From the NCBI GenBank assembly GCA_019055375.1, contig JAHQIW010000321.1, positions 1-64,000 on the forward strand: DNA of 64,000 nt. Direction: 5' to 3'. Positions 17,411 through 62,577 of this stretch are shown here, piece by piece. The stretch is from Parelaphostrongylus tenuis. Taxonomy: Eukaryota; Nematoda; Chromadorea; Rhabditida; Metastrongylidae. The first letter of the stretch is position 1; each line of letters opens with the position of its first letter. The position numbers and the translations under genes were made by a program. The notes beneath the pieces were generated by a model. The model did no database searches, was not told where the DNA came from, and worked only from the letters and a program-made list of their open reading frames with translations.

Positions 17411-17592
17411 ATGATAACATGTTTAGAACTTTTCATGAGGTCTGGTATTGCATTTATTCAGTACTAGCTAAACCTGCTTTGCCTTACTCCGTACTACTGA
17501 TGAGCCTGGAAAGGCGAAACGGGACTGCAATATGCAAGTACTGAAAAAGTGCCATACCAGACCTCATAAAAGGCTCAAAACATCTTATCATG
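17411..17592 (+). mobile_element. HHR element, short inverted-repeat form (family 3)
   Basis: Arms of about 55 bp (17,411-17,465 and 17,537-17,592) are near-perfect reverse complements. Both read ATGAGGTCTGGTAT on one strand and end AGTACT towards the centre. They enclose a 70-bp core with a hammerhead motif. The right arm (CAGACCTCAT, GGCTCAAAACAT) resembles the right ends of HHR families 1 and 2. Confidence 0.75.
17491..17541 (+). ncRNA. hammerhead ribozyme, type I-like, probably inactive
   Basis: Core box CTGATGA lies at 17,497-17,503. Stem II is GCCT/AGGC with loop GGAA (504-515) and GAAA follows at 516-519. Stem I is GTACT (17,491-17,495) pairing with AGTAC (17,537-17,541). The U expected just before the cleavage position is missing (TGC at 17,533-17,535), so cleavage is doubtful. 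Hammerheads self-cleave RNA by attack of a 2'-hydroxyl at the site between stem III and stem I. Confidence 0.75.
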
Positions 17593-17599
17593 TCAACAT

Positions 17600-20500
17600 A
17601 AAATTATAATACCAATAATTCTTATGTAAAGTTTGATTTGCAGATCAGCTACCTTAGTTGGTGGAAAAACGTAATCTTCTTTTTGGTCTTACAGCGCTCC
17701 ATAGAAATTTTTCTTGAAAATCAATCCACACTGCAGAGTTTTCGCGATTTGAGCTAGCGAATCACTGCGAAAAGTTCAGCGACGAGTCGACAAATCTCAG
17801 CTAAATAAACAGAGAAAAATGAATGCGTAAGAAGATCTTTTTGGAAACCAAATTCATTATCAAAATCGTCGAGATCTGACCTTTTGAACACTTGTCAAGA
17901 GCTTGAGGGAAAAAATTTTTTCAAAGATAAAGACTTATAAACATTCGTGTACCAGCACAGGCAGACGCCCTCCCGAGCAGGTTAACCTGTTGAGAACCTC
18001 GTCGATTTTTTGAGCGACAGGCGGCGAAACAGCGCAGCTCCCGCAGATCCGGTAGTTGTCCAATAAAACTCAAATTTTTGTCGTCACCAAAAAGACTTTA
18101 CGTTAGCAAAATATGGAGGAAGAGACTTTTATTTTTGTTTTTGAAACATGCCAAAACAATCATGAAACAATGAATTCGTCAGGAATGATACTGCACATTG
18201 CAATACAATGCCACTTAACCAGCTTCAAAACAAAAAAACTTCTAGATAAGCAAACTTCAGGAGTTGATACTTCTATAGCGTTATATCAGAGGCTTTGTTC
18301 AACTGTCGTATGGGTTCTTCTTGAAAATTCATTTATACTGGTATTTTCATCATTTCGTCGCTGCAGTCTAAGAGTCGTGCTGACGTTTATTTCATAAGGC
18401 AACATTTTCAAAGAGAAAAGCCAGATCCATGATAGGATTATATTTGAAGCTTCAACTGAACAGTTTTATGTTTTTTCATTTACATTTATCCATATTCCGC
18501 TTTATCTATTATTTATTTCCTATAAACGGCTTATCTCTGTTTATTGCTATGGTTCAGCTGACGTCCTCACTTCAGACGTTTTTCCAAGTCTAAGTTTCAC
18601 GCACCACAAATTTCAAATGTCAGTTCCATATTTGCTCATTGAAGACTCCATGGTTTATAATTAAGCGCCCGAAAGTTCCATTCAACATGTATCCGTTCTG
18701 TTATAGAATGTGCGGTAAAAACTCGTCAAAATTACAAAAAGAATCTTGACAGATGTTTCTACGGTAACTTGTTTCTGATTTCCTACAGCTTCTTCAAAAG
18801 AAATAGCACAGTGGATGCTGAAACACGCTATCAGCAGCTAAGGTTCGGCCCCTTTGCTAACGCCATTCTACAAGTTTGCATGAGGACCCGTAACTCGGCT
18901 ATTCCTAAGACCTTTCGGAGAATCCTCTCGATCAGCATCTCAAGACAGTCATAAGATAAGGATATGCCCTGCAGCAGCCAAGACAACACGAGAAATGCTT
19001 GAAGACCTTTTTGGAGGTCCAGTGGGACACGGCTTCTGATATCGGCACAGTGTCTGTTAGGATAGATCTTGTAATGAAAAGCCTTCTCTCTCAGATTATA
19101 AAGCTCTCAATATTGGTCTACTGGTGGAGTGTTGCCGGTTGTGTCATGTGGTAAAACGTACAAATGCGGGACCAAATTTTGACTTATTAATTTGATGACG
19201 CGAAGGAAAGGTTGCGTATGAGGCAGTGAAATTCTATTTACAGGTCCAAATCTTTGACCAGCCGTCTATCAAGTCGTCTCGATCATTTTGTATGTTAATG
19301 GAATTCGACAATGTGCCTCCTAACAAACATTTAGAAGAGAGCCTAATGCACTACCCAAATGTGAATAGGTTACAGTTTTGAAACGTGGACGAACCATAGT
19401 AAAATTCGAAACCAAGATTGAGAATGCTGAAAATCGAGGAAAACTTGGAAATTCAGGTAGGCCGCTGTCACCTTTTCCGGATAATTTCGCATTATCCCCT
19501 ACAGCAGATGAGGCTCTTGCCTTGCCTTTTTTCTTGTCATATCTTAACCCAATGATAGTATCAGTAATGGTGAGTGAACGCCAGTGCTGTGGGAAATAAA
19601 AATTTATCAACTCTAATTTGGCTGAAACTGCTGTAAAATTGCATTTCAATAACTTTTATTCACTATCCATTCTTTCTTTATAAGAGGATACGACAGGTTA
19701 AATATTGATGAAGAGGAAGGCAAAATAGTGACCATGCAAAAGAAAAATAAGTGCTTTTAGCTTATTGTGGATTGCATGAACAATTGTAATATAAATCAAC
19801 ACTTTGATATTTTCGACAAAATCACAATCGTGAGAAAGATGCGTTGTACACCGTTGACATGTAACCGACCTATGGTGGCCATGGACCATACCCCATGACT
19901 AACAGTATCATACTATTCAATGTACCTATTAGTTTCCCCACCAGGAGCATAGTAGAATGAACGCGTAGATGAAAAGGTGCTTCTATACATAAAATTTATC
20001 CAAACTTATCACATATTCTATGGAGCATATCAATAAGCTCGGTTTGGCAAGGCGCCTCACAGTGCAAGTCGAAGTTCATAAGTCGATCTTTCGAAGCTAC
20101 AGCAGAGCAGCCTCGAATCGAATAAGGGCGACAAGCTACGTTATGGATTTATCTTGAAGAGTACACGCCAATCGTTCTCTTTCCTAGGAAACTTACGATG
20201 ATTTGATGAGAGCGAAAATCAAGCTCCATTTCTAATTGAGAAATTGTGGATAGAGAAAGCACAATTTTATTTACCGTTGCTCACATCTGTTGTATTGAAA
20301 TGATGCTCTTATTCTCCACGTACTTTCTAAATGGATGAACGTAATATATGGTGATTAGTGGATCGAGCAGAGGTCCTAAACGATTTACCTTTCATAGACC
20401 TAAACAACAATAGTTAATGTTTTTTATCGCCTGCTCGTCAAAAATGTCCCACAAAGATCTCGTCAAATTATGTCTATTGTATTTCAAAGTAGAAGGATTG

Positions 20501-20700
20501 GAGATTTCATATTTTTGAGTTTTGCTCAAAGTATAAGCCTTGTATCTTCCGGCATAGACACTATAAACTTATGCGTGGCTGCTCAAGTGAGCGAAATGTA
20601 CGCTACGATGTCCACCTTGAATTATTGTTTTCTATAATGTTTATCACACATTTCATGCTTTTAATTTCTCTATTTGCTTACACATTCCGTCATCACATTA
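17600..20700. other. Mostly unassigned sequence
   Basis: It holds a family E fragment near 18,965-19,020 (block AGCAGCCAAGACAACACG) and a possible minus-strand exon at 19,320-19,649. The other open frames show no motif. Confidence 0.45.
19378..19600 (-). CDS. possible exon of unknown protein
   Basis: I do not recognise a family. The longest frame in this part of the window (109 codons, 19,320-19,649, minus) includes IIGLRYDKKKGKARASS and GDSGLPEFPSFPRFSA, hydrophilic and basic. A polypyrimidine-rich TTTCCCACAG lies in the right place for an acceptor and GTAGGG after SSA could be a donor. The complementary plus-strand frame (19,378-19,599) is equally open, so strand choice is uncertain and the frame may be chance. 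Confidence 0.2.
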
Positions 20701-20711
20701 TTTATTGTGCT

Positions 20712-20934
20712 GATCCCAGTACATAGAGCGTTTAATTCGTTTTTCGTCTTTTTCGTGAACGACGTAAATACTGTTCGAGAACGTCTCCTTGCAATCTCGA
20801 CGAAGCCTGGCTGTGGCGTTTGAAAGAGCGTTCTTGCTGACTATCGGAGACTATAGGAGGGGGGAGGGGGGAAGAGATGGAGCTCGCCTTCACGCGTGTC
20901 GCGACGAGCATTACACCGTCGGCCACGGCGCAAT
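20712..20934 (-). mobile_element. SINE family C copy with G-rich expansion
   Basis: The minus-strand head GCGCCGTGGCCGACGG is followed by the usual body and ends CTGGGATCAGCACAAT facing lower coordinates. At 20,855-20,872 the plus strand holds a G-run expansion (GGAGGGGGGAGGGGGG) not seen in the other copies. Confidence 0.8.
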
Positions 20935-21289
20935 ATATATTACTTTCGAAGATAATTCGAAAGAGGTCGTAGTAAAATGTTTGCAACCAGAGAAGCCATC
21001 TTCTTTGCGTTAAGATCACAAAAATCCTTAGATTTTTCTTGAACCAAATACGAGGTTTCATAGCACTATCTATTCTGAGAACTGATGCTTCGGCGGTTTC
21101 ACCTTCTTCAAAACCTAAAAAGACAAGCTGCCCACAACTCAGTCAAACACCTAGATTATAATAAACTTTTGAAGATTGCCCAGGTTAATGGATGCCGCTC
21201 TTGGAAAATGAAGAAAATCTTTCATCGGAAAATAGTCGAACGTTTGAGTAGTAATCGATAGATATCTACTATCTCGAGTACTTACCACT

Positions 21290-24200
21290 CTTTCTTGGAT
21301 AAGCGGTAGGAGCTTATTTCTTGGAGGCGACTCCTATCCGCCTCCCATGTACTTCCCAGCCCCTTGATTGCAGGCTTTTCACCGACTTGATTCGCAGAAA
21401 TAAAGTTTGTCAAGTCGGCGCTGCAGAAGCAGGGAACTCATCCCCCTAATCCACCTGCGTTTCTGGGAAGCACACGGTCGCTTTTGGTTCTTGTTTATTC
21501 CCCTATCCACCACCTGGTGACGTGCCATGTGCCCACGCGGCAGACCAAAGATCCTTCAGAGAGGGAGACCCGTACCCAGCCCCCTTAGAGCCTGGCAAGC
21601 TATACGTTGGGTATCAAAATGCCAAAAACAGTAACGAATATGGGCCTCATTCCCCTTACCCCGAAAGAGCCCCTGGTACGGCAGCGCCAGGTAGGACGAG
21701 TACGGAGAGGCTGCTAAAATCTTAGAGCCAAACTAGGCTGCCAAGATCGGAAAGGACTAAAATGACGAACTGTACCTACAATGCCAGAACCATTGTTCAC
21801 AAATCCGCTGTAGAAGATCTACTGATTCAAGCAAGAAGAATAAGACACGACGTCATTGGCCTGGCTGAGACAAGAAGACGCCACCATTTCCACGCTGTTT
21901 ATGACACCGCAGAAGAACTGTTCCTTGAAACGTGCGATAGCAGAGGTGTCGGAGACGTTGGCGTCCTCGTCAAATCGAATTCAACCGTGAACTCGATTCG
22001 TTTGAACAACTAACAACCCATTTCGGACAATTGCAATTAAAGCGATATGATTCTATGCCGGCTTTGACCATCTTCGTTGCTTACGCACCAACATCAAGCC
22101 ATGACAAATTCGAAGTCGAAGCGTTCTATATGAGCCTCGAAAAATTCTTCAAAGAGGACCATACTATCTCCAAGGTCGTTGTCGGAGATTTTAATGCAAA
22201 AACTGAACCTAGAAGAACGTCTGGAGAACGTCACATTGAGACCCAGGACTAGATTGGAATGAACAGTGTGAGATGCTATCTGAGTTTATCATGACGACCC
22301 AAACCATCCAGGGAAACTCGCAATTCCAATAGCGTCACTCTCAGTGATGGACGTGAGAGTCTTCCAATGGAGAGTATCATAACGAGATAGACCAAATCTC
22401 AGTGAATCGAAGGTTTTGCCTGACCGATGTCGCTGTTCTTCCTATGTTCTACACATGATCAGACCATCGCCTCCTTTGCGCATCGTTCCGTTTTTTGGGA
22501 AGCGGAGAAAAAGCCGCTAAAATCAAACAACGAAGTCCCAGAACTACTACAAACTGGATTGTATTCAAATCATTACTCGGCTCTTGGGAAGATACCGTTG
22601 TCGGCCACATCAACGAAGAATACGAGCGCCACGTTGAATATCTTTACGTTAACGCTATGAAAGCCGAGAGTCCTTAGGTCACAAAGAGACGCCTGTCTCT
22701 GCAGACACTTGAAATGATACGTCAACGTGGAGTCACACGAGCTAGGGGCAACCAAAACCTTACGACCGAACTTGCGAAACGGTGCAGGGACGCGATAAAA
22801 GAAGACCTCATAGCGAGACGAGCAGCAGTCATGGCAGAAGCTGCACAAGTTGGGAAGAGCATTCGCAAAACCCAGCGAGGCTTCGCCAACTATAAGACCA
22901 AGATGATTGCACTCCGATACCCTGACGGGACACTTACAGCTTCCAGAAGGGCTATGGAGAAAATCATCCACCAATACTACTCGGATCTCTTCGCTAGCCA
23001 TGTTCCCTTACCGTCATATAAATTGAAAGAGGACGAATATGTCGTTCCACCGGTCCTTCCTTCCGAAATTCGACATGCTATATCGTCGGTGAAGAACAGA
23101 ACAACACCCGGTCCAGACAGGATTAGACCAGAACACATGAAGAACTTGCCGCCAGTTCTCATCAACACCCTGGCTCGGCTCCTAACTAGCTACCTGTCAG
23201 AATGCAAGATCCCCATTCAATGGACCGTATTGCTGTTCAAAAAGGGAGACCTTCACGACATAGGCAATTATCGCCCAATTTGCTTGCTGCCTGTTGTCTA
23301 TAAACTCTTTACTCGAGTCATCCTAAACAGGATTGACAGAACACTGGACGAAGGACAGCCATGTGAACAAGCAGGGTTCCGAAAGGGATCTAATACCATA
23401 GACCAAATCCACACGATTACAAGACTCAATGAAATTTTACGAGAGTACTAACAAACATTATGTCTCACTTTCACCGATCTGAAGAAAGCCTTTGATTCAG
23501 AAGAAACAGAAGCGGTTACAGAGGCTCTGGATAACCAGGGCGTCCCTACTCGGTACATAATGACTCTTTGTGAGCTTTATAAAGATTTCACGACCAAACA
23601 TCTCCTTTTTACAAGACTATCACCATTGACTTAAGAAGAGGGGTTCGGCAAGCCGATAGAATTTTGCCAGAACTATTCACTGCCACCCTACAAAACATCA
23701 TGCGAACATTAGAATGGGACGATATGAGAGTGGAAATCGACGGTCAACAAATAAACCATCTTCGCTTTGTTGACGATATCACCCTCATAACACCAAACAT
23801 CAGTCAAGCGGAACGAATGTTGACCGATTTCGATAACGCCTGTGGGAAGGTAGGTCTTCAACTTAATTTCACGAACACGATGTACATGAGCAACGGATGG
23901 GTTTCGAATGCCCAATTTACGCTCATTGGAACGAAAATCTCCAAATGCTCCACTTACGTCTATTCAGGTCGTGAAATCACATGATGAACAACCTAGCTCC
24001 AGAGTTGAGCAGGAGGAAACTAGTGGCTTGGGGAAAGTTTGAGAGCATCGAAGATGTAGTGAAGAGGACAACGAACATCCGACTCCGTGCCCACCTTTTC
24101 GACTCGACGATTATCTCTGCATTGACGTATGCAGCAGAAACTTGGTCATTACGCAAGCAGGAAGAAAGATCGCTTGGCGTTATCGAACGCGCAGTCGAAA

Positions 24201-24600
24201 GGTCGATGCTAGGAGTATCCCGTATCTCGCAAAAGAGATAGGATCCGCAGTTCCGATCTACGTCAACGATCGAAAATCAGAGACTCCGTTCTACACGCCA
24301 GTATATCGAAGATAAGGTGGGCCGGACAAGTGATACGCTTCAACGACAACCGATGGACGAGAGCCGTTACCGACTGGATTCCTCGGGACATCAAGCACTC
24401 TACGGGAAGAGCACCGACGCTTTGGTCTGATTTCTTCACGAAATTTATAGAAGAAAGATATGATGCTCAGCGAATCCCTAGAACGAGGAGGATCCACTGG
24501 GCTACTCTTGCACGCTATAGGAAAAAATAGAAGTGTTGCTGGTATTTGCTCGAGTCACTCGACGATCAGCGAGACTACAGGTGATACAGGTGATCTCCTA
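21290..24600 (+). mobile_element. RTE-clade non-LTR retrotransposon, near full length, inactive
   Basis: About 3.3 kb. A G+C-richer 5' untranslated stretch (about 21,290-21,760) precedes an endonuclease plus reverse-transcriptase frame. It ends in the 3' signature TCACTCGACGATCAGCG and short GTGATACAG repeats, typical of RTE tails. The same 3' end occurs as truncated copies at 12.9, 31.0 and 34.0 kb. The exact 5' boundary cannot be set without a second copy. Confidence 0.85.
21762..24530 (+). pseudogene. RTE polyprotein pseudogene (AP endonuclease + reverse transcriptase)
   Basis: In RTE elements this protein nicks target DNA and primes cDNA synthesis there. Visible in order: endonuclease motifs NARTI, DVIGLAETRR (about 21,850), VVVGDFNAK (about 22,180) and SDHR (about 22,455). 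Then come the RT thumb/finger region RTTPGPDRIRPEH (about 23,100), GNYRPICLLPVVYKLF, EQAGFRKG, motif A FTDLKKAFDS (about 23,475) and motif C FVDD (about 23,770, family FADD). The C-terminus is RRIHWATLARYRKK. Stops at about 22,011, 22,250, 22,454, 22,675, 23,449 and 23,634, plus at least two frameshifts, disable it. The start is the ATG at 21,762. Intact relatives are common in hookworm genomes (established knowledge). Confidence 0.9.
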
Positions 24601-33150: not shown

Positions 33151-33741
33151 CTAACACAAGTCTCAAAGGGCTTAAAAACGTGTCTGCTTTTCGAAAAAGC
33201 TCTTTTGATAGCTCTGTAAGAGAAAGTAAACATTTGTGTTTTACACCTCGCCCGACAGGGCTCTAATCGGCGAGCTTTAAAAGTCGTTGCTTTCAAAGTC
33301 GTTCTTCTTTAATCTTTTCGCCCAAAAAGTGATCACGAGCCATGTTGTAGGTGCGCCAGCTTCAGCTTATTTTTGACAATGGTTCAAACGCTTCAGTTGA
33401 TTCCAAATTTCGTGAGACATTTTGCGAATCGAACGCTCCGGATTTCGTTGAGCTTACAAACGGATCTTCTGAAAGTTTTTCGGAGCAGACGTGGGGCTGG
33501 ACGATCATTTCCCGGACGGTCCTCATTCCCTCTAATCTCTTTGACACACGTCTCACGGTTCTCTAGACACTTGTTGGTTTTGAACAGTCACTTTTGATAA
33601 TGTCGACCGTCCTCATTTTCGACATGTGCAACTCAATTACTGTGATATGTTTATCTTTACGATTCGTAACTTCTAATGAACTGAATGCAATGATTTTTTG
33701 GTATTGATATAACACGTTTTGCGCCGTTTGTTAGGTCTAAG

Positions 33742-33790
33742 TGCGAGACAAGCGCCTGTTTCGTCCCCTAGGACTCTCCATTAACACAGT
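33742..33790 (-). ncRNA. hammerhead ribozyme remnant
   Basis: The minus strand keeps stem II GTCC/GGAC with loop TAGG, the GAAA box (plus-strand TTTC at 33,759-33,762), a GTC cleavage triplet and a 3' stem I strand TCGCAC. The CUGANGA box has been lost (AATGGAGA in its place), so it should be inactive. Confidence 0.55.
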
Positions 33791-33973
33791 CCCTAGGTTC
33801 AGACAATTCCTTGAGGCTACACTCCTCTATGAAGAAGTCGACGGTGTGCAATAAACAGCGCAAGTCACGTGATAGAATCCCCTGACATTGCAAGACCAGC
33901 AGTCGAGCTTGTGCCTGCAAAAATGAATTTGTTTTTATAGCATGAATTCATTTTCTGAGATTTTTTTTCGATG

Positions 33974-34128
33974 GTCCAATTTCTTCACGAAAGCGATAGA
34001 AGAAAGATATGATGCTCAGCGAATCCCTAGAGCGAGGAGGACTCACTGGGCTACTCTTGCACGCGATAGGATGCTGGTACCCGCTCGAGTCACTCGACGA
34101 TCAACGTGACGACAGGTGATACATGTGA
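33974..34128 (+). mobile_element. RTE retrotransposon, 5'-truncated 3' end, nested
   Basis: Starting TGGTCCAATTTCTTCACG it follows the last ~155 bp of the RTE element, including GAAAGATATGATGCTCAGCG and CACTCGACGATCAACG, and ends in GTGATACATGTGA. It sits in the middle of a family 2 HHR element. Confidence 0.85.
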
Positions 34129-34301
34129 ATTCATTTTCATAACCAAAAAATGATATCATTTAAGCAGTCACAAGCTCAACTGTTGGTCTTTGCAATGTCA
34201 GGCGATTCTATCACCTGACTTGCGATAATTTATAACTTTCCTTCACTTCGGTTCCTTCATATAGGAGTACAACCTCAAAGGATTGGCTGAACCGAAGGAA
34301 T

Positions 34302-34347
34302 GTGCTGCTGAAGAGTCCTAGAGAACAAAACAGGCGCTCGTCTGCAC
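34302..34347 (+). ncRNA. hammerhead ribozyme remnant
   Basis: CTGAAGA (34,308-34,314; position 7 may be any base) is followed by GTCC TAGA GAAC, then AAAA where GAAA is expected (G12 to A). After this come CAGGCGCTCGTC and TGCAC. Outer stem I pairs GTGC with GCAC. The G12 change should abolish cleavage. Confidence 0.6.
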
Positions 34348-34904
34348 TTAGACTTAACAAACGGCTCAAAACATATTATATCATTATCAAATTATCAATC
34401 AAAATGGAAAGATTATATGACAGATTCCATATCACATTTAGACAAAGAATTCAATGAAATTATCATTTGTCAAAATTGATAAAAAATATTATATCAATGA
34501 TGGATTAGCAAAGTACAAATTAACAGAACTTTTCTCACACCCTATAGAAGTTAGTCATTATAGTGTACTCTTCAACGCTCATGATAGTGCCGTCAGTAAA
34601 GGCCGAAATTCACAGAAAGCACACGTCGATTTGCTAGAAGGAACAGTACGAGCCGACTACCGGCAGATCACAGAGTCACAACTGAAGCATTCATCAAGTG
34701 AATCACTACAAATCGGTACAACAACTGCAGCAACCAAATTGACTGAAACCACTACATTTCTGATGTATTACCTTTACTGCCGAGGCCACTAACTGCTACA
34801 ACGGGATGCATGGTCGAACAAATGACCACGTGTTTAATGCATGCAACATTAACCACTGCGGTACACTCTCTCTTTTTTGGAAATAAAAGATAAAAGATAG
34901 AACT

Positions 34905-36497: not shown

Positions 36498-36792
36498 CCT
36501 AAAATTTTCCAACAAATCAATCAATCAAATAGTGGCATTACCGCAACGTATAGCATGAGGGAAACAAGCTGTTCGAAATTTTTTGTTTGACCACACAGCC
36601 ACACAGTCGAAGACCAGATCACCTGGTGGTCACTCAAGACGCGATAGTCTCGTAGGTATGAAGTAAGCATCAAAGAAGGAAAACTATTGTGGTAGCTGTG
36701 AGATTCGCTAAAGTTGAAGATTGATAAATAGTACCAGCGTGCCTGATAGTTATTTTCGAGTCATGCATGTGGTCTGCTTGGGCACTTATACA

Positions 36793-36835
36793 GTGCAATA
36801 GACGTGTTTCGGCTTTGAGGCCTCGTCACTTGCAC
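36793..36835 (-). ncRNA. hammerhead ribozyme, C3 mutant
   Basis: The minus strand has stem I GTGCAA/TTGCAC (6 perfect pairs), box GTGACGA where CTGACGA is expected, stem II GGC/GCC around CTCAAA, GAAA, and cleavage triplet CTA. The C3-to-G change at plus position 36,829 is a classic inactivating mutation, although all helices remain. Confidence 0.75.
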
Positions 36836-36997
36836 GTGTCATTTCTCGCAGTCAGTTCTTTGGGGATAGCCTCTTACATAGAGGAGTCGACGACACACTT
36901 TCTACACGTCCCAGTAAGTGATACAATCACAGAACGGGTATTGTTGTACACTCGATTGCTCTTGATCCCCGAGGAACTGACTGAACGAAAAGGCACC

Positions 36998-37040
36998 GTA
37001 CAACTGACGAGGCTGGAAGACTGGAACACGTGTCTTGCAC
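36998..37040 (+). ncRNA. hammerhead ribozyme, GAAA-box mutant
   Basis: CTGACGA at 37,004-37,010, then a weakened stem II (GGCT/GACT), GGAA in place of GAAA, and the triplet GTC before TTGCAC. Stem I pairs with GTACAA upstream in five of six positions. Probably inactive. Confidence 0.65.
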
Positions 37041-37261
37041 TATATAAGTGCCCATAACAGACCACATGCATGGCTCAAAACTATATGGCATATTGAAATT
37101 TGAGCATAATCTCAAGAAACACCTGAAACAAAAGGTATGAATATATCAGCACGTTTGAAAGTGACTGATAAGGCTTAGCACTTTGGAGCAAAATAATCGG
37201 TATTACTTCTCTATCACTTTGTTTGAGCTGTGTCGCAGTTTTTTTTCCTATTGTACAGCTA

Positions 37262-40977: not shown

Positions 40978-41296
40978 CTTAGTAACTAAGAGAATTGAGT
41001 GGTGAACAAAAACACGGCCTCAGGCGGTAATCGAACCCACTTTTCGTCCTATCCGGGGACGCGTGCTCTACCACTACACCACTGAGGCACATTTGCCCGA
41101 CCACTCATTCTTCTACATCTCAATGTCAGCTATCAGCCACCAACCTTTTGACAGGTTTGGTCGGGTATGCGATTTCGCTTTATAAACCCAGTTGAGCTGA
41201 TAGCTATTCTAATTACTAATACTTCGAAATTACAGTATTTTCACTGCTTTTTTTTCGCAGTGTTATTATGTTCTTATGTAACTAAGAGAATTGAGT
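40978..41296 (-). repeat. Family A repeat unit plus the start of a second tandem unit
   Basis: The unit has the same order as at 0.1-0.6 kb. The left-flank sequence TAACTAAGAGAATTGAG occurs at 40,983 and again at 41,279, giving a period of 296 bp, nearly identical to the 297 bp at the window start. After the second left flank the unit breaks off. Confidence 0.75.
41017..41088 (-). ncRNA. tRNA-like sequence, family A, best-folded acceptor
   Basis: The acceptor stem is perfect (GCCTCAG/CTGAGGC). The anticodon stem is CGTCC/GGACG around the 7-nt loop CCGGATA, and the B box is GGTTCGATTAC. The loop has C at position 33 and T at 37, unlike decoding tRNAs. A Pol III promoter role is more likely than translation. 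Confidence 0.65.
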
Positions 41297-44235: not shown

Positions 44236-44559
44236 TGCGACTGATTATCGGTAACAAAATAGTCAATGATTTGTAGTTATGGTTTATTCCATGACATATT
44301 CTAATAGAGTGGTGCAGAAGGAATGATGGCTTTTCAGCTTTGATATGCTAGCACTAGTTTTACAAAGTTACTGAGGAATGAAATTATAAACTTCCGAAAG
44401 TGGTAGTTCTCCTACAGTATTTTCGGGGGATTTTTATATTGCTGGTAGACGAAATTAGTACACGTCGAGATAAATAAAATTTTGATCTGAAAAATATTGA
44501 ATATACCAGCCAAGAACAATCGCGTATACAATGCTCTGTGTTCGGTAATAATTTCACTG

Positions 44560-44790
44560 GATATAGAGTGTAAAACGTTCGTCGTCGCTAACTCGCAGTG
44601 TGGGGACTGGAGCACCCACAGAGATTAGCAAAAGACGAGAAAGGGTAACTGCCCGACTGACGAGATCGCAAGATCGAAACACGTGTAGCGGGCTCTATAA
44701 GTCAGCCCTCATTGACAGACCACTGACATGCGTGGCTCAAATAATGATTATCAAGCATATTAAATATTTCGATTTGAAAGATAAGTCGCA
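44560..44790 (+). mobile_element. HHR element family 1, single plus-strand unit
   Basis: GTTCGTCGTCGCTAACTC, GGACTGGAGCACCCACAGAG and a variant of the GGATTGGCTAAAAG motif precede an intact hammerhead. CAGACCACTGACATGCG and GGCTCAAATAATGATT follow. No mirrored left half is evident at this locus. Confidence 0.8.
44647..44700 (+). ncRNA. hammerhead ribozyme, type I, core intact
   Basis: Box CTGACGA at 44,657-44,663; stem II GATC/GATC with a GCAA tetraloop (664-675); GAAA at 676-679; a two-pair stem III with loop ACGT; cleavage triplet GTA ending at 44,687. Stem I pairs GCCCG (44,651-655) with CGGGC (689-693). Beyond an internal loop (TCTATA) it continues with GGGTAACT against AGTCAGCCC. The short stem III is typical of metazoan hammerheads, which usually work as dimers. 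All residues known to be essential are present, so cleavage after 44,687 is predicted. Confidence 0.9.
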
Positions 44791-45135: not shown

Positions 45136-45249
45136 CCTCCATATTTGACAGCTTTTTCGAGAGCTCGCTCGAAATTCAATACATCCTAGCATCATATTGG
45201 AAGCCGTTCATGACGTCTCTTGCACCATGTCGAGAGTTCGATGAACGTT

Positions 45250-45282
45250 TTAGCTTATTTTAGCAAGACTCATCAGTTGCAG
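45250..45282 (-). ncRNA. hammerhead ribozyme remnant
   Basis: The minus strand keeps CTGATGA (plus 45,270-45,276) and a possible stem II ending AAGC, but GAAA has become TAAA and the stem I 3' strand is not found. Inactive. Confidence 0.45.
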
Positions 45283-45677
45283 GTTTCTTTCGATTCAGCC
45301 AGTCCCTACATACAAGGGAATCGGCGCCAAACCACGTAAAGTGATAAAATTCTCTAATACTACGGTGGCAGGATATCACTGCATGTCGAGTGATAAGATC
45401 ACCTGACATTGCAGCAATCAACAATCAATTAATCAGGGCTGGTCAATTGCATGATACCTTTCTTTATATTTGACTGTTTATTCCAGACTTCACTGGAAAT
45501 TTGTAACATCCTAACAACATCTACTGTTAATCATTACAATTTCAGGTGATCTTTACACTTGATATGCAGTGATTTGTTATCATTGCTACGTCGGGTGATC
45601 TTATTCACCTTACACGCAGCACAACATGTCCGGCGTCAATTGCCTTCTATGTAAGGATTGGCTGAACTGAAGGGCAC

Positions 45678-45721
45678 GTGCTACTGATGAGGTTTAGAAG
45701 CGCGAAATGTATGTCAAGCAC
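45678..45721 (+). ncRNA. hammerhead ribozyme, type I, core intact
   Basis: CTGATGA at 45,684-45,690 and GAAA at 45,704-45,707. Stem III has two pairs (A-U, U-G) around GTAT, and the cleavage triplet GTC ends at 45,715. Stem I pairs GTGCT with AGCAC. Stem II (GGTTTAGAAGCGC) is weakened by an apparent one-base loss, so activity may be low. Confidence 0.8.
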
Positions 45722-45789
45722 TAGAGAAATCATAGCAGACCTCTTGAAAAACTCAAAATATAATGTCATGATGTGTTGAAGTTTACAAC

Positions 45790-46999: not shown

Positions 47000-48720
47000 A
47001 GCTATAATTCATGAGAATTTTGGACATAAAGTGCTTAGAATAAGCTTTGCGTAGAAAAAACAACGTAAATTCAACATGAAAATGAAGTAGCGCATTCGGT
47101 ATCAGTTTCTGTATATCTTTGGAAAAAATTCTCGGAAATTCTGAAAATGTTGCGCTTGACAAGTGAACTTTGGTGAAAAATGTCATATAAAGTGGAAATA
47201 TTGAGTAGATGAAGACTTTCTTTCATAATTTTGTGATACTCCTGACCACACATCATTTAAGCACCGAAAATTTTTAGTAAATTTCTTGAAAAAGCAGCCT
47301 TCTTTTGTTCAAATCGCGAAGATGTTCACAGTTTTTTGGTCGCCTCGAAATCAAGTGTGACTCGTAATTCTGAGGTGGATGCAGACCGAAATCTAATTAG
47401 AGCGTGGATCAGTGGGCAGCTCAAAAGGGATAATGCATTGTTATATGACTTTTTTGCAGGAAATAAGCTTCAATGATGACAAAATACATGAGCGTCAGCC
47501 AGTATCTGATAGTGACCACATGAAAGCGAGACTAGAATCAGAGTGTTCAAATGTTGCTAGAGAGGTTGCGGATGAACACTCAGCAACTACTTCACATTCT
47601 GAAAGCGATTATGATTAGTGATTTCCATATAATTTTTTTTATAAATTCTACAGTTCCCGGACACATTGTGATGTGTCACGTAGAGTAGCCGAGCGATGCA
47701 CGGCTCTGTTAAGATAAGTGTACCCTTCTATTTTAGAAAATCCGATTTTTATTCGACGGTTATAAGCAAGCATTTTCCGTAGGCAATACTGTGAAGACTC
47801 TAATAACTTCTACTTGAATTTAGCAAAGTTGATTGTGGGCTAAGATATGCAAACACAGTCTGGAATCGCAAAAAAATCGGGCATTAAATTTGTATGCATG
47901 GACTGGAAACAAACGTTAGTCACCGAAAAATCTAATATTCTAAATCAGAAGTATAAGTGCCATTAGACCTCAGCATTATCAACTCAAACTAAATTATGAC
48001 TCTTTTACTAAAACTCTTCCCCCAACCGACCATCTATTTTACTTGAAGCACGCGCTCTGTGGTAATGTGATATCTGACGTTCGGCAAATTCGTTTCTATT
48101 TTTTGGTTCGTCTAAGACACATAAATTGTGATGTATGGCGCCTCATTAGCGACCTTTTTATCTAATAAATCAAACGTTGAGCTTTTATCAGTAAACGGTC
48201 ACCTAAATTAATTGTGAATAGATTTATGCTATTCATAGAGAACTTTAGCTAAACAATTGAATGTGTTGCGGTATAGTACGTATGCTTTGAGGGAGGAGAA
48301 ACTTGCGAAACGTCAGATAATATTTTGTAGAAGACACAAGAGCCCGCGTAAATCTCAGAAAAAAAGATAATTCGCAGGACACTACCGAAAATAATTAGTG
48401 TTTTTTGTTAAACAGACACAAAACTATCAATGCATTCTTGTTGTTTTCTGACCATTGCTCCGGCGCTCTTTCATGAAAGCCGGAAGGGTCACACTGGTCG
48501 TAATGTGCCTGCCACATAATCTCTCATGTCAAGCAAAAAAAAACTCAAAGCGAAATTTGAAAGGAATGAAGAACACTTTTTGAAATTATTTATAGTTTTT
48601 GTAAGCATATAGCAGTAGTGGAAAGGTCAAATGGATACGTAGCTCACTTAGACAAACATTTTTTCCACCAAAGCAAAAATGTTTGTACATAGATTTTTGA
48701 ACTGCAACGTAAAACAGATT
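47000..48720. other. No recognisable gene
   Basis: The frame 47,412-47,618 (plus) is hydrophilic and acidic with no motif. The rest is unassigned. Confidence 0.45.
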
Positions 48721-48727
48721 CTATCTT

Positions 48728-49010
48728 TCTTTTCGAGCGTTTTCCAAGACCACGTTCAAATTTCAATATGTCAGATAATCATTTTTGAGCCACGCATGTC
48801 GTTTGGTCAGTTGAAAATGAGCTGACCTATAGAGCCCGATACACGTCGTCTACTCTTAGTAAAGGGGACTGAGCATCCCGAGAGGATTGGTTAAAGACAA
48901 AGGTGCCCGACTGACGAGATCGTCAAGGTCGAAACACTGTATCGGGCTCTACTAGTCAGTCCCTTTTTAATAGGTCACATGACATGCGTAGCTCAAAAAT
49001 GATTTTTTGG
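48728..49010 (+). mobile_element. HHR element family 1, compact inverted repeat
   Basis: The ends AATCATTTTTGAGCC and GGTCAGTTGAAAATGAGC on the left mirror GCTCAAAAATGATT on the right. The left half is cut inside its ribozyme (only ACACGT and the GAGCCCGATA strand remain) and joins directly to the family motif ACTCTTAGTAAAGGGGACTG. The right half holds an intact hammerhead. It looks like a shortened form of the divergent-pair element. Confidence 0.8.
48905..48947 (+). ncRNA. hammerhead ribozyme, type I, core intact
   Basis: Stem I GCCCGA/TCGGGC is six perfect pairs. CTGACGA is at 48,911-48,917; stem II GATC/GGTC has loop GTCAA; GAAA is at 48,931-48,934. Stem III is a two-pair hairpin and the cleavage triplet GTA ends at 48,941. 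Compared with the 44.65-kb copy, stem II changes by a G-U pair and stem I is better paired. Predicted to be cleavage competent. Confidence 0.9.
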
Positions 49011-49562
49011 CATAAAAAGATTCTTCTGAAATTCTCATATTTATTTCTTGTAGTTCGCCCACTTGTTCCCGGGGACCAGCCGAGCAGACCCTTTATGGCA
49101 TGAAGTGGGCCTGACTAAGATCTACTCTAATCGATCAGAGCTATGCGCCATACTGTTATACATCGTTTATCTTGTATGTTGTTTATATCGTTTATCGATG
49201 AAGCGCATCTTCGTATAGCTCACATGTCCTATTTAATGAATGCACTTCTAGTCTCTTGTTATGTACAGAAGTTTTTCTACATTTTCTTGAGGATCTGAGG
49301 AGTGATAGCCTTGATTTGTAATTCCATGTGATCGTAACCTGCTGTTGTAAAGCACCCCTATTTTTTTGTCACTGCTAATATCTTCGACATAAGACCGTAT
49401 GAGGTATATTTGCCATCTCCTATTCTACTGTTAGGACGCACAGTGCCCTGTTGTGCAGAGACGGTCATACAGGCGTTTGCGAGGCAATTGACGAAGCGAC
49501 GTATCAGGTAAAGTTTCTAAATCTACTACGCACTTTAGCATTTTATTTGACCCATCATCCAG

Positions 49563-49931: not shown

Positions 49932-50078
49932 GAGTGCTGTGCAAAAACGTTTGCGTCAGCCGGGATTCGAACCCAGATCTCACTCTTTCCGGGAGCGTAT
50001 GCTAACCGTTGCACTCAACGGAAAAAGTGAGATTTGGGTTCGAATCCCGGCTGACGCAAACATTTCTGCACAGCACTC
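49932..50078. repeat. Family B foldback, 60-nt tRNA-like arms
   Basis: Arms 49,932-49,991 and 50,019-50,078 are near-perfect reverse complements with a 27-nt loop that holds the A-box-like part (GTATGCTAACCGTTGCAC). Both arms carry a full B box, GGGATTCGAACCC on the left and GGGTTCGAATCCC on the right. The family tail (CATATTGGGTATAC, then ACCACTGCAAGTGGC) follows the right arm to about 50,125. Confidence 0.85.
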
Positions 50079-57575: not shown

Positions 57576-57594
57576 TCGATACAAAACTTTCTCA

Positions 57595-57690: not shown

Positions 57691-57699
57691 TTACATAAT

Positions 57700-58200
57700 C
57701 AAATACCAAAAAAGATTTTTTCTCATCTGCTTTACACATAAAAAGACGGACAATTGCTTCGAACTATTGATGGAATAGTCAGAGTATAGTAGGTCTACAT
57801 GAGAAAACATTCAGAGAACTGGCATCCATTTTTGAACGTTCAAACTCATCTCTGCGAAAGTGGCTGTATTAAGAAGCGAAATCAAAGGCCAAGCAGCAGA
57901 AAAATACTGCGCACATTTTTCCTCTCATCCTTCGTACATTAAAGACACTTATGAATAATATTGGTTAAACATCAAACATTTGTGCGCAGTAGAAAAGTAA
58001 AGGGATAAATCGCCAAATTTGGCATGATGACTAGCTATTTCCGATAGCTATGATGTAGCAGCCATTATTTTCATACCAAATAATGTATGCCTCAGAACAA
58101 CAAGTCAAATGTATACAAGTCAAACAAGATATATTCCTTCTTAAAAACCCTTCGTATCAAACGAGATACGTAATGAAATAAAACCAAAAGAGAAATAGGT
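57700..58200. other. No gene seen
   Basis: Unassigned A+T-rich sequence. Confidence 0.5.
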
Positions 58201-58204
58201 CTGG

Positions 58205-58255
58205 TCATTATTTTTGAGCCATGCATGTGGTCTTTAATGGGCATATGGGCAGCGA
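58205..58255 (-). mobile_element. HHR element family 1, end fragment
   Basis: ATTATTTTTGAGCCATGC, TGTGGTCTTTAATGGGC is the reverse complement of the right end of family 1 (GCCCATTAA, CAGACCACATG, GGCTCAAA). The ribozyme is not present. Confidence 0.6.
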
Positions 58256-58259
58256 AGAG

Positions 58260-59400: not shown

Positions 59401-59482
59401 GACTATTATTACTATTCCAATGTATCTCATAATTGTTATTTGAGCCAGCTTGTCACAGGGTCTGCTAATGGACTCTTATACA

Positions 59483-59527
59483 GCCCGATATACGTGTTTC
59501 GACCTTGACAGTCTCGTCAGTCGGGGA
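59483..59527 (-). ncRNA. hammerhead ribozyme, type I, core intact (minus strand)
   Basis: Minus strand: stem I CCCGA/TCGGG, CTGACGA (plus 59,514-59,520), stem II GACT/GGTC around GTCAA, GAAA (plus 59,497-59,500). Stem III has one mismatch, and the triplet ATA is followed by TCGGGC, so the cut is predicted between 59,489 and 59,488. All essential core bases are present. Confidence 0.85.
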
Positions 59528-59792
59528 GAAAGCTACGTCTTTTAGCCAATCCTCTGTGGGTGCTCCACTCCCACACTAAGAGTAGGTGACGACGAACGAC
59601 ACTACACCACTGCACTACACTGCAGTCAAGTGAAGATCACTAGATCGGCAGTTTTGTGCAGTTTTGCTCATGGCCAGTATTTTGAAATGTATTATACCGT
59701 TTGCTTCGAGTGTTCTCTTAAGATCACGCTCAAATTTCAGTATATCTTATAGTATGCGGACTGGAGCACCCACAGAGGATTGGCTAAAAGAC

Positions 59793-59830
59793 GTGACGAG
59801 ACTGTCAAGATCGAAACACGTGTATCGGGG
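59793..59830 (+). ncRNA. hammerhead ribozyme, stem I strand deleted
   Basis: Box GTGACGA, stem II GACT/GATC region, GAAA at 59,813-59,816, and GTA then TCGGGG. The upstream strand of stem I (GCCCGA in other copies) and the C of the first box have been deleted, leaving AAAGACGTGACGAG. Inactive. Confidence 0.7.
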
Positions 59831-59964
59831 TGTACGAGAGCCCATTAACATATCACATGACAAGTTGTGGCTCAGGTAACAACTGGGAGATATTTTTAGA
59901 TTTGAGCGTAGTCTAAAGAAAGCACTCAAACCGAACGGTAACATTACTGTTGTTTCTTGGAGCA

Positions 59965-60365
59965 AGGCATCCTTACACTCCCTTCTGGAAGATATTTATG
60001 ACTGGAACAATAATTTGCCAGATTCATGTATAGAGCAGTGGACCAATATATGCACAAAAATGCAGGGCTTTACAATACCTTTAGCACGTTGCATTAGCTC
60101 AAAGAATGGCAACTACACTCTAGCAACCTTTGCCGACGTCGAAATGAAGCTATCGCTACTTGCATCTGCCCGCGATCTAATCATTCAACGAATCTTATTG
60201 TATTAAAAGGCGGGCTACTCTCACTGGAGTCTCAATAACGCCAAAGATAAGACTAGACGTTTTTACTCTAGCACCCATAGTAACAGGCGTCGAAGCAATC
60301 TAGCCTCAAGAGTAGTTAAGATTCAAGGATATCTAATTGTTTCAGATTCAAAAGCGTATTTGGTT
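59965..60365 (+). pseudogene. BEL/Pao LTR-retrotransposon relic (region between RT and integrase)
   Basis: The polyprotein of BEL/Pao elements has a conserved Pao/A17-associated and RNase H-like stretch downstream of the reverse transcriptase. Here one frame (about 59,970-60,205) reads WNNNLPDSCIEQWTNI, GFTIPLARCISS and YTLATFADVEMKLSLLA (family FADAS). After a stop and frame shift come VSITPKIRLDVFTLAP (family TIPKLELNALTLA) and LIVSDSKAYLVG (family FSDS..VL.W). It is interrupted and short. No LTR, integrase or gag is seen. Confidence 0.6.
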
Positions 60366-60399
60366 GGATAAGTGCAAACGCGACGTGTTAAACTCAGAG

Positions 60400-61735
60400 T
60401 ATAAAAATGATTTATGGAAGTAAAAAAAAAATTGTCAAGCATTTCCAAATCATCTGTTCTCGTTGCACCCCCTTCGGCTACATTTTGGTGCATTTCGGTT
60501 GTCGCACTCCATTTTACACCCCTTTTCCACGTTTCAAAAATTTTAGCGGTCATTTTGTTAACCTAAATATTTAAGGATGCAACATTGTGCATGCTTTTTT
60601 GTAGATAACTCATAGTTGTGCTGATCAACAAAAATCAAAAATACTTTCACGTTTGACAATTAGTAGTGGAGGTATTTTTTTTTCTCTTTTTGAAACTTTC
60701 TCCTCCAATTCGTATATACTCTAGGCTTGCCGAGGCTTTGTTTCGCTTTGTATCACCAAATGAACCAGTTACTAACTAAGCTTGAGTCGAAGCAGCATAG
60801 GTCTCATAGTGCAAAAAGCAATCTTCTTTCCATCCTTCCAGTGCTCTATGAAGACTTTTTTGGAACAAAACTCAATTTAGAATCAAGTAGATCGATGCTG
60901 TCAAACAACTACTGAAAGTTTTTTCGACTATTCACAGCCCTAGCCGCCTTGGTGTTGTTCGTTGCGAAATGTTGCGCAGTACCAGCCACACACCCATTCA
61001 TAAACCGTAGGCGAAAACTGCACAATAAGTGTAGGATGCAATAGTACTTCCGCTATTACGTCGCACTAGAAAAGGTTTCCTTAGAAACCAAATATATGAA
61101 TGATTGTTATAACTCTGAAAAAAGCGAAAAGGCTTCGATCTCAAAGTTTGAAGAATATATCACTTTGAACGTTTTTTACAGAATTTTCTACATTACTTCT
61201 GGATTGACTGACTGTCAACTCAATTTTGTAGGCAAGAAGAGATCGCGGCTATAGGAAAGCAACATGGAATTACTGATGGAGGTTTCTTACTCTTACATAT
61301 ACCTTTTCAAAAAAGTACACCCGTTGCGAAGACTTGCGTATGAATAGCCTTGCGTACAAGTATTTCAAGTAGGAACAAGAAGACCCTACCTTAACAAAGA
61401 GTTCATAGATCACATCCTGTCGAGAACGTTCGCCACAACTATTCTAACCCACTAACATTAACCGAATTATAACCCACTCAACCAAATGCAACCGAGCTGT
61501 AGCAGCATACATGGCCACCAGATTTATATATCTGGTTATCGTATCAACTTCACAACCGTCACATTCGTTTATGCATCTAGGTCGTTTCTTCGCTGCACAG
61601 GGAACCCTCTTCGATGCAGAAAACACTTCCAATGAATGTCGGTAATCCATTCAAAACGATTCAAAGATAAAACGTACTGTTGTCAGTCATGAAATATAGT
61701 AAAGATATATCTCATAATTAATATCTGCGCGAACA
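60400..61735. other. No recognisable gene
   Basis: It may contain more decayed BEL/Pao sequence after 60,365, but I could not follow a frame. The minus-strand frame 61,444-61,650 has no motif. Confidence 0.4.
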
Positions 61736-61771
61736 TGTCATGTGCTCTATCATGGAATGGACTCATGTGCA

Positions 61772-61816
61772 GCTCGATAGACGTGTTCGGCCTTTAGCAA
61801 CCTCGTCAGTCGAGCA
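61772..61816 (-). ncRNA. hammerhead ribozyme, one-base deletion in GAAA
   Basis: Minus strand: stem I GCTCGA/TCGAGC (6 perfect pairs, two of them changed by compensation relative to GCCCGA/TCGGGC), CTGACGA (plus 61,803-61,809), a GU-rich stem II, then GAAC with one A missing, and triplet CTA. Probably weak or inactive, but a strong witness of helix conservation. Confidence 0.75.
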
Positions 61817-62166
61817 CGCCCATCGTCTTTAGCCAATCCTTTCGGTGATGCGCCTATCTCCCTACTTAGAGTAGGCAACAACGAACGATTTAGACAACTG
61901 CCTTCAAGTGAAATAATCAAGCAGATCGGCAATAGTGTACACTCGAGTGTTCGATAATGATCATGAGATACATTGAAATTTGAGCGTGATTTAGAAATTA
62001 CTCGAAACAAACAGTATAATGTTTGAAAAATACCACAAAGAACATTCAAAGACTGCCAATCTAGTAATTTATCTAATATGACCGCAATAGTCGATCGTTC
62101 GTCGTCGCCAACTCTAAGTAGGGGGATTGGAGCACCCTAAGAGGTTTGGATAAAGACGAAGGGCCT

Positions 62167-62208
62167 GCCCGACTGACGACGCTGCAATCCGAAACACGTG
62201 CATCGGGC
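62167..62208 (+). ncRNA. hammerhead ribozyme, decayed stem II and cleavage site
   Basis: Stem I GCCCGA/TCGGGC is intact, CTGACGA is at 62,173-62,179 and GAAA at 62,191-62,194. Stem II (CGCTGCAATCC) is no longer paired well and the triplet is GCA rather than GUA, so cleavage is unlikely. Confidence 0.75.
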
Positions 62209-62577
62209 TGTACAAGAGCCCATAAAAGACCACATGACATGATGACTCAAATAATAATTTTGAGATATATTGTTATGTGGGCGTGGTCTTGAGAAACACT
62301 TGCGACAAGCGGAAGCTGTTTCGTCTGTTCCATGGCCATAGGACTCTTATGATTAATAAATCGAGCTTTGCGAAAGTCTTGGAGCACCAAAACGTTTATT
62401 GGAGTATATGAAAACAATGAAAGACGATTCTATAATTGATACACGACCATTATTGATCGTGGAATCACATCCAGCACGATGAGAAATACTCAAACCGATC
62501 CCCTTCAGAATTGATAGTAATTCCTTCTCCACCGGATGGACTTGACAAAGAAAAGAGCGGCTCTCTTCACCTCTTAC

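What the first reader, a model, noticed from the sequence alone, without database searches (positions are those of the whole stretch)
17411..62310. A belt of hammerhead ribozymes carried by small repeats
Thirteen sites in eight element loci match type I hammerheads: stem I strand, CUGANGA, stem II hairpin, GAAA, tiny stem III, NUH, stem I strand. The chance of repeated exact agreement of these parts is small. Type I hammerheads with very short stem III are known from metazoan retrozymes and Penelope-like elements (established). Their presence in several element families of one nematode window is, to my knowledge, little described. This is the best candidate for a new system here.
Basis: partly seen in the sequence, partly recalled or inferred. 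Interest (0 to 1): 0.93.

Follow-up and report, generated by a model that had tools for sequence, protein, structure and literature searches.

The report
Hammerhead ribozymes in mini-Penelope repeats
The window, likely from a roundworm, holds eight old copies of a short repeat family whose ribozyme motif recurs at hundreds of sites in the genome; most copies are two halves joined head to head, they encode a predicted self-cutting hammerhead RNA, and they were likely inserted by Penelope-type jumping genes.

Summary
Eight repeat loci carry type I hammerhead (HHR) motifs: seven sites score 20 or more of 23, against 0.32 per shuffled window. Stems I and II covary. Five intact genome copies match Rfam RF00163 end to end at 32.6-33.3 bits, just under its 34-bit cut-off. 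Only two window sites pass a strict descriptor; the window copies are decayed. The 481.5-Mb genome has 710 sites near one 32-mer and 220 near a 44-nt consensus, 8 exact; reversed controls 0.

Seven of eight window loci, and 27 of 40 fetched loci, contain head-to-head inverted pairs. Five clean cases show target duplications and one short, one tailed end. The same genome has many Penelope-like elements (RT plus GIY-YIG) with their own HHR; 18 of 21 listed neighbours are head to head, and six of six pairs examined have 12-14-bp duplications and unequal ends.

Best reading: ORF-less, Penelope-mobilised HHR elements, predicted to cleave as dimers. No convincing sequence similarity to the Penelope ends compared was found; cleavage is untested.

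The parts
44536..44778 (+). single unit, family A; HHR 44651-44693, predicted cleavage after 44687 (A-G mismatch next to the cleavage site)
   Evidence: 82.2 bits; used to build the model; RF00163 22.8 bits
48729..48846 (-). left arm of inverted pair; 3' part of the unit with the long tail (tail match 48702-48784), no HHR core
48844..49023 (+). right arm of inverted pair; HHR 48905-48947, predicted cleavage after 48941, the best-scoring copy (23 of 23)
59414..59738 (-). left arm of inverted pair; HHR 59483-59526, predicted cleavage at 59489 (minus)
59740..59932 (+). right arm of inverted pair with long tail (profile match 59636-59932, overlapping the other arm); HHR remnant 59768-59851 whose stem I 5' strand is lost
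   Evidence: 39.5 bits, not used to build the model
61698..61946 (-). left arm of inverted pair; HHR core 61809 (minus), stem I changed by compensation to GCUCGA/UCGAGC; GAAC in place of GAAA
62042..62307 (+). right arm of inverted pair with long tail; HHR core 62173, U16.1 changed to C (probably inactive)
36730..36957 (-). left arm of inverted pair; HHR core 36829 (minus), C3 changed to G
   Evidence: 72.5 bits; used to build the model
36952..37130 (+). right arm of inverted pair with long tail; HHR core 37004, GGA in place of GAA
   Evidence: 74.4 bits; used to build the model
45152..45437 (-). arm of inverted pair, family B; degraded HHR core 45276 (minus)
45505..45787 (+). arm of inverted pair, family B; HHR core 45684, predicted cleavage after 45715, weak stem II
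   Evidence: 15.1 bits, E 0.055 with a model built without it
33703..33894 (-). left arm of inverted pair, family B
34173..34406 (+). right arm of inverted pair, family B; degraded HHR core 34308
17376..17497 (-). left arm of inverted pair, family B
17440..17638 (+). right arm of inverted pair; HHR core 17497 with perfect stem II GCCU/AGGC
   Evidence: 19.5 bits, E 0.0028 with a model built without it
58147..58253 (-). tail fragment of the same repeat family, no HHR core

Best explanation
The belt is eight decayed copies of short repeats that carry type I hammerhead ribozyme motifs, predicted to self-cleave and likely as dimers, and that were likely inserted by the Penelope-type retrotransposon machinery whose genes are found in the same genome. 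SHOWN by sequence: HHR cores with covarying stems I and II; hundreds of sites; mostly head-to-head pairs; arms of one locus more alike on average than arms of different loci; in clean copies target duplications and unequal ends (one arm with a tail of about 45-55 nt); Penelope-like elements (one ORF with RT and GIY-YIG endonuclease) with the same orientation rule, duplications and unequal ends and a smaller HHR. INFERRED: a source copy is transcribed into a short RNA; the HHR trims it, probably when two RNAs pair through the 8-nt palindrome ACACGUGU of stem III; a Penelope-like enzyme cuts the target and primes reverse transcription on both strands at two internal start sites of the RNA; the two cDNAs meet head to head and are joined. 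That would make each insertion an inverted pair with one short and one tailed end. PREDICTED: a transcript through a whole inverted pair folds into a rod that hides the ribozyme, so active source RNAs should come from single or tandem units.
For: HHR: descriptor against shuffles. Covariation: in 7 window copies 6 of 12 pairs have changes on both sides, 12 such cells against 4.9 shuffled, slid controls 1-2; in 48 copies 8 of 12 pairs, 30 cells against 7.8, slid controls 3-8. RF00163 end to end at 32.6-33.3 bits on five intact genome copies in L022, L056, L057, L066, L068. Core alike between loci in 663/814 comparisons against 7740/14437 elsewhere, but within loci 44/57 against 832/1146: constraint before insertion, near-even decay after. 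Copy number. Architecture: window 7 of 8 loci; in 40 fetched loci 29 head-to-head, 14 same-strand and 3 tail-to-tail neighbours under 400 bp. Arms: 0.792 identity within pairs against 0.732 when re-paired, 0 of 5,000 permutations. Target duplications: 10 of 36 pairs against 83 of 1,260 controls; five clean ones, each with one short and one tailed end. Penelope side: 150 GIY-YIG matches scored of 1,723 candidates, those shown over the cut-off, open frames up to 902 aa; RVT_1 plus GIY-YIG in both ORFs tested; arms 99.3-99.8% identical in L041, L042, L048; HHR in all 8 of L041-L048 and 8 of 12 of the shorter L029-L040; 2,215 sites of that HHR, control 0; 18 of 21 neighbours among the 100 listed places head to head, none tail to tail; in six pairs examined (L041, L042, L048, L069-L071) duplications of 12-14 bp, at most 1 mismatch, and unequal ends: long arms reach 101-122 nt beyond the HHR core, short arms 55-62 nt in five and 23 nt in one. 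Papers: PMC3846280 (passages: inverted pLTRs, head-to-head most frequent, optional 31-bp tail on one inverted pLTR, 8-10 bp duplications); PMC11167929 (main-text section read: cuts and extends both strands, starts internally, tail lies between two start sites, HHR present).
Against: The small repeats show no convincing nucleotide similarity to the two Penelope ends compared (8 comparisons: 16-34 of 500 shuffles as high in four, 90-408 in four), so the driving element is not identified. I saw no listed HHR place within 5 kb of a listed GIY-YIG place (by eye; the lists are partial). Unequal ends over all 36 pairs: 23 one short and one long, 9 both short, 4 both long, p = 0.052. The partner arm is the closest arm in only 6 of 52; in the window tree the 45 kb arms are not sisters and the 48 kb arms are unresolved. 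The duplication count includes L016 and L060, probably copies of one locus, and matches that are element motif or simple repeat (L022, L015). Window copies give no duplication above chance one by one. In one search the number of pair types is not above shuffles (377 of 500), and the shuffles ignore relatedness. The outer stem I helix shows no covariation (7,683 of 20,000 permutations as good). The two-strand priming step comes from one lizard element in vitro, where HHR mutants inserted normally and no difference in start site between strands was seen (PMC11167929). 13 of 40 fetched loci have no head-to-head pair. No cleavage or RNA data.
Confidence: 0.72

Rival explanations
1. They are ordinary metazoan non-LTR retrozymes: tandem repeats of about 300 nt transcribed, cut by the type I HHR, circularised and reinserted by some LINE-type enzyme; the inverted pairs are secondary rearrangements.
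For: Units of up to about 300 nt with a type I HHR, with tail pieces on both sides of a unit at 59 and 61-62 kb; 14 same-strand neighbours of 46; PMC7229834 (first part of the text and passages seen) describes such repeats in several invertebrate phyla.
Against: Head-to-head pairs dominate (29 of 46, 3 tail-to-tail); clean copies have target duplications around the whole inverted pair, so the pair was inserted as one; the main text of PMC7229834 has 0 occurrences of 'inverted' and of 'nematode'.
Confidence: 0.15
2. They are miniature inverted-repeat DNA transposons or foldback elements that happen to carry an HHR in each terminal repeat.
For: Inverted arms, and duplications of about 10-17 bp.
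Against: The outer ends are not inverted repeats of each other: one arm ends about 45-55 nt earlier in the five clean cases; the inner ends of the two arms often start at different unit positions; arms are more alike within a locus than between loci.
Confidence: 0.06
3. The HHR is only a remnant: the repeats are Penelope-derived but the ribozyme has no role in their spread.
For: In the lizard element HHR mutants insert normally in vitro (PMC11167929); only 2 window sites are strictly intact.
Against: The core stayed alike while flanks of different loci diverged; stems covary; 22 of 41 genome copies pass an intactness test, though these rows were chosen for a readable core.
Confidence: 0.12

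Closest known systems
Penelope-like elements with pseudo-LTRs (Drosophila Penelope, Adineta Pen families, Anolis PAc)
   Same: Head-to-head inverted repeat units of about 200-300 nt, an optional tail on one arm, target duplications of about a dozen bp, HHR in the repeat (PMC3846280, PMC11167929)
   Different: No RT/endonuclease ORF; HHR with a longer stem I (6 bp against 4) and a longer stem III palindrome (8 nt against 4) than the Penelope HHR of the same genome; no convincing nucleotide similarity to it
Metazoan non-LTR retrozymes (PMC7229834)
   Same: Non-coding units of up to about 300 nt with a type I HHR, hundreds of sites
   Different: Mostly inverted pairs, not tandem arrays; circular RNA not tested
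Dimeric hammerheads of newt satellite DNA and of Penelope elements (PMC6155905 passages; Lunse et al. 2017, title seen only)
   Same: Very short stem III with a palindromic sequence; two RNAs can form an extended stem III (fold)
   Different: Dimer cleavage not tested here; stem III palindromes of 4, 8, 10 and 12 nt in families of one genome
Sm-alpha and W elements of Schistosoma (titles and abstracts; PMC6155905 figure legend)
   Same: Non-autonomous animal repeats with type I HHR
   Different: Flatworm; arrangement not checked

Membership tests
Hammerhead ribozyme, type I | Conserved core C3UGANGA9, G12AA(A), NUH at the cleavage site | tested here: met
   8 exact 44-nt consensus copies in the genome; several window copies carry core mutations
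Hammerhead ribozyme, type I | Three stems, open at stem I, kept by covariation | tested here: met
   stems I and II; the two stem III pairs show no change on both sides; outer stem I helix not supported
Hammerhead ribozyme, type I | Rfam RF00163 gathering score | tested here: not met
   window 19.0-22.8 bits, five intact genome copies 32.6-33.3, cut-off 34; best family on the window stretches
Hammerhead ribozyme, type I | Self-cleavage | not testable with these tools
   needs in vitro transcription
Penelope-like element (non-autonomous derivative) | ORF with RT and GIY-YIG endonuclease | tested here: not met
   window arms of about 120-325 nt are too short for it; three stop-to-stop frames of 106-128 aa that overlap them match no Pfam family; so they are not autonomous Penelope elements; such ORFs occur elsewhere in the genome
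Penelope-like element (non-autonomous derivative) | Head-to-head inverted repeat units | tested here: met
   (27 of 40 loci); same rule in the genome's Penelope elements
Penelope-like element (non-autonomous derivative) | Optional tail on one arm | tested here: met
   5 of 5 clean cases; 23 of 36 pairs overall, p = 0.052
Penelope-like element (non-autonomous derivative) | Target-site duplication | tested here: met
   five clean cases of about 10-17 bp; window copies: not demonstrable one by one
Penelope-like element (non-autonomous derivative) | Sequence descent from a Penelope repeat | tested here: inconclusive
   no comparison clearly above shuffles; only two Penelope ends compared
Metazoan non-LTR retrozyme | Tandem head-to-tail units | tested here: not met
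   14 same-strand of 46 neighbours, some of them tail fragments
Metazoan non-LTR retrozyme | Circular RNA | not testable with these tools
   needs RNA
MITE / TIR DNA transposon | Matching inverted termini at both outer ends | tested here: not met
   unequal ends in the five clean cases

The most novel reading that the evidence does not exclude
A distinct class of parasites of Penelope elements: ribozyme-bearing non-coding RNAs of about 300 nt that hijack a Penelope enzyme, cleave as palindrome-joined dimers, and are copied from both ends of one DNA break at once, so that an insertion is born as an inverted pair; the many such pairs in one nematode genome would be a fossil record of two-strand target-primed reverse transcription, and each inverted copy silences its own ribozyme by folding into a rod.
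Probability: 0.35. Interest if true: 0.78.

Novelty: new variant of a known kind. Interest (0 to 1): 0.62.

Why it matters
How Penelope-like elements insert, and what their hammerheads are for, are open questions. A genome with 2,215 Penelope-type HHR sites and hundreds of short HHR repeats sharing one insertion anatomy lets both be tested: the unequal ends and inverted arms predict two internal start sites and priming from both DNA strands, and the palindromic stem III predicts dimeric cleavage. It would also extend HHR-bearing mobile elements to nematodes: five searches of the held papers with hammerhead, retrozyme or Penelope and nematode terms list no such report in the titles and abstract starts shown; three of the five found more papers than they listed, and the two closest papers are not held.

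Tried and rejected
Rfam at gathering scores: no hammerhead in the window. Viral contigs for the motif: none. Outer stem I helix: no covariation. Target duplications in the window copies: not above chance one by one (for example the 9-mer at 59 kb occurs in 200 of 2,000 random pairs); two window pairs, 33/34 and 48 kb, have 11-mers with one mismatch. Similarity of the small repeats to the Penelope repeat: not convincing. Twin priming of a LINE was considered: it also gives head-to-head inversions but would not by itself give two recurrent end positions. Snap-back priming was considered: it should give equal arms and a palindromic centre, which L069 has, but L041 and L042 have arms of unequal length. 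A further HHR family with a 10-nt palindrome in L047 could not be counted: the genome search did not complete.

Host: not given. A nematode is inferred from a Srd chemoreceptor fragment, and a strongylid from the Penelope protein's nearest named relatives in Necator, Ancylostoma and Haemonchus (own records may be left out there).
Full report
OBSERVATION. The window's core motifs were listed and compared with one another. A profile of the units finds arms at eight loci from 17.4 to 62.3 kb plus a tail fragment at 58.2 kb. A strict type I descriptor finds 44,687 and 48,941, none in 300 shuffles. A relaxed score gives 7 sites at 20 or more, all inside the repeats, against 0.32 per shuffle (60 shuffles), with three at 21-23 that no shuffle reached; at 19 and below chance matches abound. 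A covariance model built from the seven family A copies finds the family B sites 17,491-17,553 (E 0.0028) and 45,660-45,739 (E 0.055), but also an unrelated place at 14,970-15,045 (E 0.042), so family B rests on homology and structure together.

STRUCTURE. In the seven window copies stems I and II keep pairing through compensating changes: 6 of 12 pairs, 12 cells against 4.9 expected, slid controls 1-2; the number of pair types is not above shuffles. With 41 genome copies added (48 rows): 8 of 12 pairs, 30 cells against 7.8, slid controls 3-8, 89.8% of cells paired. The shuffles do not keep relatedness; the slid controls do. Exchanging stem I strands between eight window copies is as good in only 25 of 20,000 permutations; for the outer helix it is as good in 7,683, so that helix has no support. 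Stem III is A-C, four loop bases, G-U; the eight letters ACACGUGU are self-complementary. They are intact in 25 of the 34 rows that could be parsed, of 41, and a two-strand fold forms the eight-pair stem. Other families in the genome have palindromes of 4 (ACGU, Penelope), 10 (L047) and 12 letters (L022). Rfam RF00163 covers five intact copies end to end at 32.6-33.3 bits, 0.7-1.4 under its cut-off; three window copies score 19.0-22.8.

SELECTION AND AGE. Between loci the ten core positions agree in 663 of 814 comparisons and the other positions in 7,740 of 14,437; within loci the figures are 44 of 57 and 832 of 1,146. So the core was held while source lineages diverged, and copies decayed about evenly after insertion. 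In the window arms of a locus are 63-78% identical. They are sisters in the tree for 17, 33/34, 36/37 and 59 kb, group together for 61/62 kb with the 58 kb fragment inside, are unresolved for 48 kb (with 44 kb) and are not sisters for 45 kb. Across 27 genome pairs the arms of a pair are 0.792 identical against 0.732 after re-pairing, 0 of 5,000 permutations, though the partner is the single closest arm in only 6 of 52.

ARCHITECTURE. Seven of eight window loci are head-to-head pairs with both units pointing outward; not every arm keeps a ribozyme core. In 40 fetched loci (39 from the places with at most 1 mismatch, one chosen for its visible pair) neighbours under 400 bp apart are 29 head-to-head, 7 and 7 same-strand (some of them tail fragments) and 3 tail-to-tail; 27 of 40 loci have a head-to-head pair. 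Loci with two near-identical copies, such as L014/L064, may be assembly duplicates and were not removed there. Eleven-letter duplications flank 10 of 36 pairs (29 of these loci, 7 of the window) against 83 of 1,260 mismatched controls, p = 0.0001; some of the ten are weak, as told above. Read by eye, L010, L025, L027, L055 and L060 are clean: duplications of about 10-17 letters, and in each one arm ends within about 15 nt after the GGCTCAAA box (or its variant) while the other runs about 45-55 nt further, to or past the CACTCGAAA stretch. Over all 36 pairs 23 have one short and one long end, 9 two short, 4 two long (p = 0.052).

PENELOPE ELEMENTS. A GIY-YIG search of the genome scored 150 of 1,723 candidates, those listed over the cut-off, many as inverted neighbours. 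The two ORFs tested hold RVT_1 and GIY-YIG; the nearest named relatives of one of them are in Necator, Ancylostoma and Haemonchus. L041, L042 and L048 are head-to-head pairs with arms 99.3-99.8% identical. All 8 of L041-L048, and 8 of the 12 shorter loci L029-L040, carry a small HHR, GGCU-CUGAAGA-AGGCGAACUGCC-GAA-ACGU-C/AGCU or a close form, with 2,215 sites in the genome within 2 mismatches and none for the reversed pattern. Of 21 neighbours under 5 kb among the 100 listed places 18 are head to head, 3 same-strand, 0 tail to tail. L069-L071 are short inverted pairs of this element with too little room for its ORF (HHRs 150-766 bp apart); L071 lies against a copy of the small repeat. In all six pairs examined (L041, L042, L048, L069, L070, L071) there is a duplication of 12-14 bp with at most one mismatch, and the ends are unequal: the long arm reaches 101-122 nt beyond the HHR core, the short arm 55-62 nt in five pairs and 23 nt in L069; [quoted passage not shown] So the anatomy of the small repeats is what Penelope insertion has recently produced in this genome.

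MECHANISM. Published Penelope copies have an inverted terminal unit, most often head to head, an optional 31-bp tail on one inverted unit and 8-10 bp duplications (PMC3846280, passages). A purified lizard Penelope protein cuts and extends both DNA strands, starts inside the RNA, and the tail lies between two start sites (PMC11167929, main-text section read). Put together, priming from both sides of a break on copies of the RNA gives an inverted pair with outward-pointing units and two recurrent ends. This is inference; that the small repeats are served by this enzyme is inferred from shared anatomy, not from shared sequence. In silico, five of the eight HHRs tested keep stem I (pair probability above 0.5) as separate units, two of them also stem II; the other three do not. 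In all seven that lie in inverted pairs the probability of stems I and II is zero to two decimals in the whole-locus fold; the one unpaired locus keeps 0.5 or more except at its mismatched first pair.

LITERATURE. Seen: PMC7229834 (first part and passages), PMC11167929 (main-text section), PMC3846280, PMC6155905, PMC7761336, PMC6431247, PMC7960049, PMC10085705 and PMC3088659 (passages only). None of the passages describes nematode hammerhead repeats; PMC7960049 names Penelope fragments in a nematode, and the passages shown mention no ribozyme. The two papers most to the point (Cervera and de la Pena 2014; Lunse et al. 2017) are not held, so it cannot be excluded that nematode Penelope hammerheads are already listed there.

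VERDICT. Real, well above chance, and larger than reported; a new variant (short, ORF-less, inverted-pair, palindromic stem III) of Penelope-associated hammerhead elements, with membership resting on anatomy and not yet on sequence descent.

Noticed in passing
window 21941-24530 +: Broken RTE-type non-LTR retrotransposon (RVT_1 pieces, a sub-threshold Exo_endo_phos_2 match; the RTE name is recalled, not from a call).
   Followed up: partly
window 59880-60206 +: Remnant of a BEL/Pao retrotransposon (Peptidase_A17) directly beside the 59.4-59.9 kb pair.
   Followed up: partly
window 35988-36524 -: Fragment of an Srd chemoreceptor gene, a sign that the host is a nematode.
   Followed up: partly
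window 33960-34110: The spacer of the 33.7-34.4 kb inverted pair holds a piece that by eye resembles the 3' end of the RTE-type ORF, perhaps a nested insertion.
   Followed up: no
window 187-257, 484-556, 41016-41088 and 49960-50015, all minus: tRNA or tRNA-like matches over Rfam's cut-off; three of them look alike and may be a repeat family.
   Followed up: no
G000:C242:73651-74758 (about 10 kb beyond the window): A head-to-head pair of Penelope HHRs with a GIY-YIG match at 74197-74460.
   Followed up: no
L047 1150 +: HHR of another family with a 10-nt palindromic stem III (ACACCGGUGU); copy number unknown because the search did not complete.
   Followed up: partly
L022 1132-1201 -: HHR-like copy with a 12-nt palindromic stem III (ACAGGCGCCUGU), by eye close to the 33-34 kb family.
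   Followed up: no
L047 893-1068: Hairpin matching a microRNA model below its cut-off on both strands, probably a palindromic repeat.
   Followed up: no
G000:C555 11918 + and 12152 -: Two small-repeat HHR sites facing each other (tail to tail), the rare orientation.
   Followed up: no
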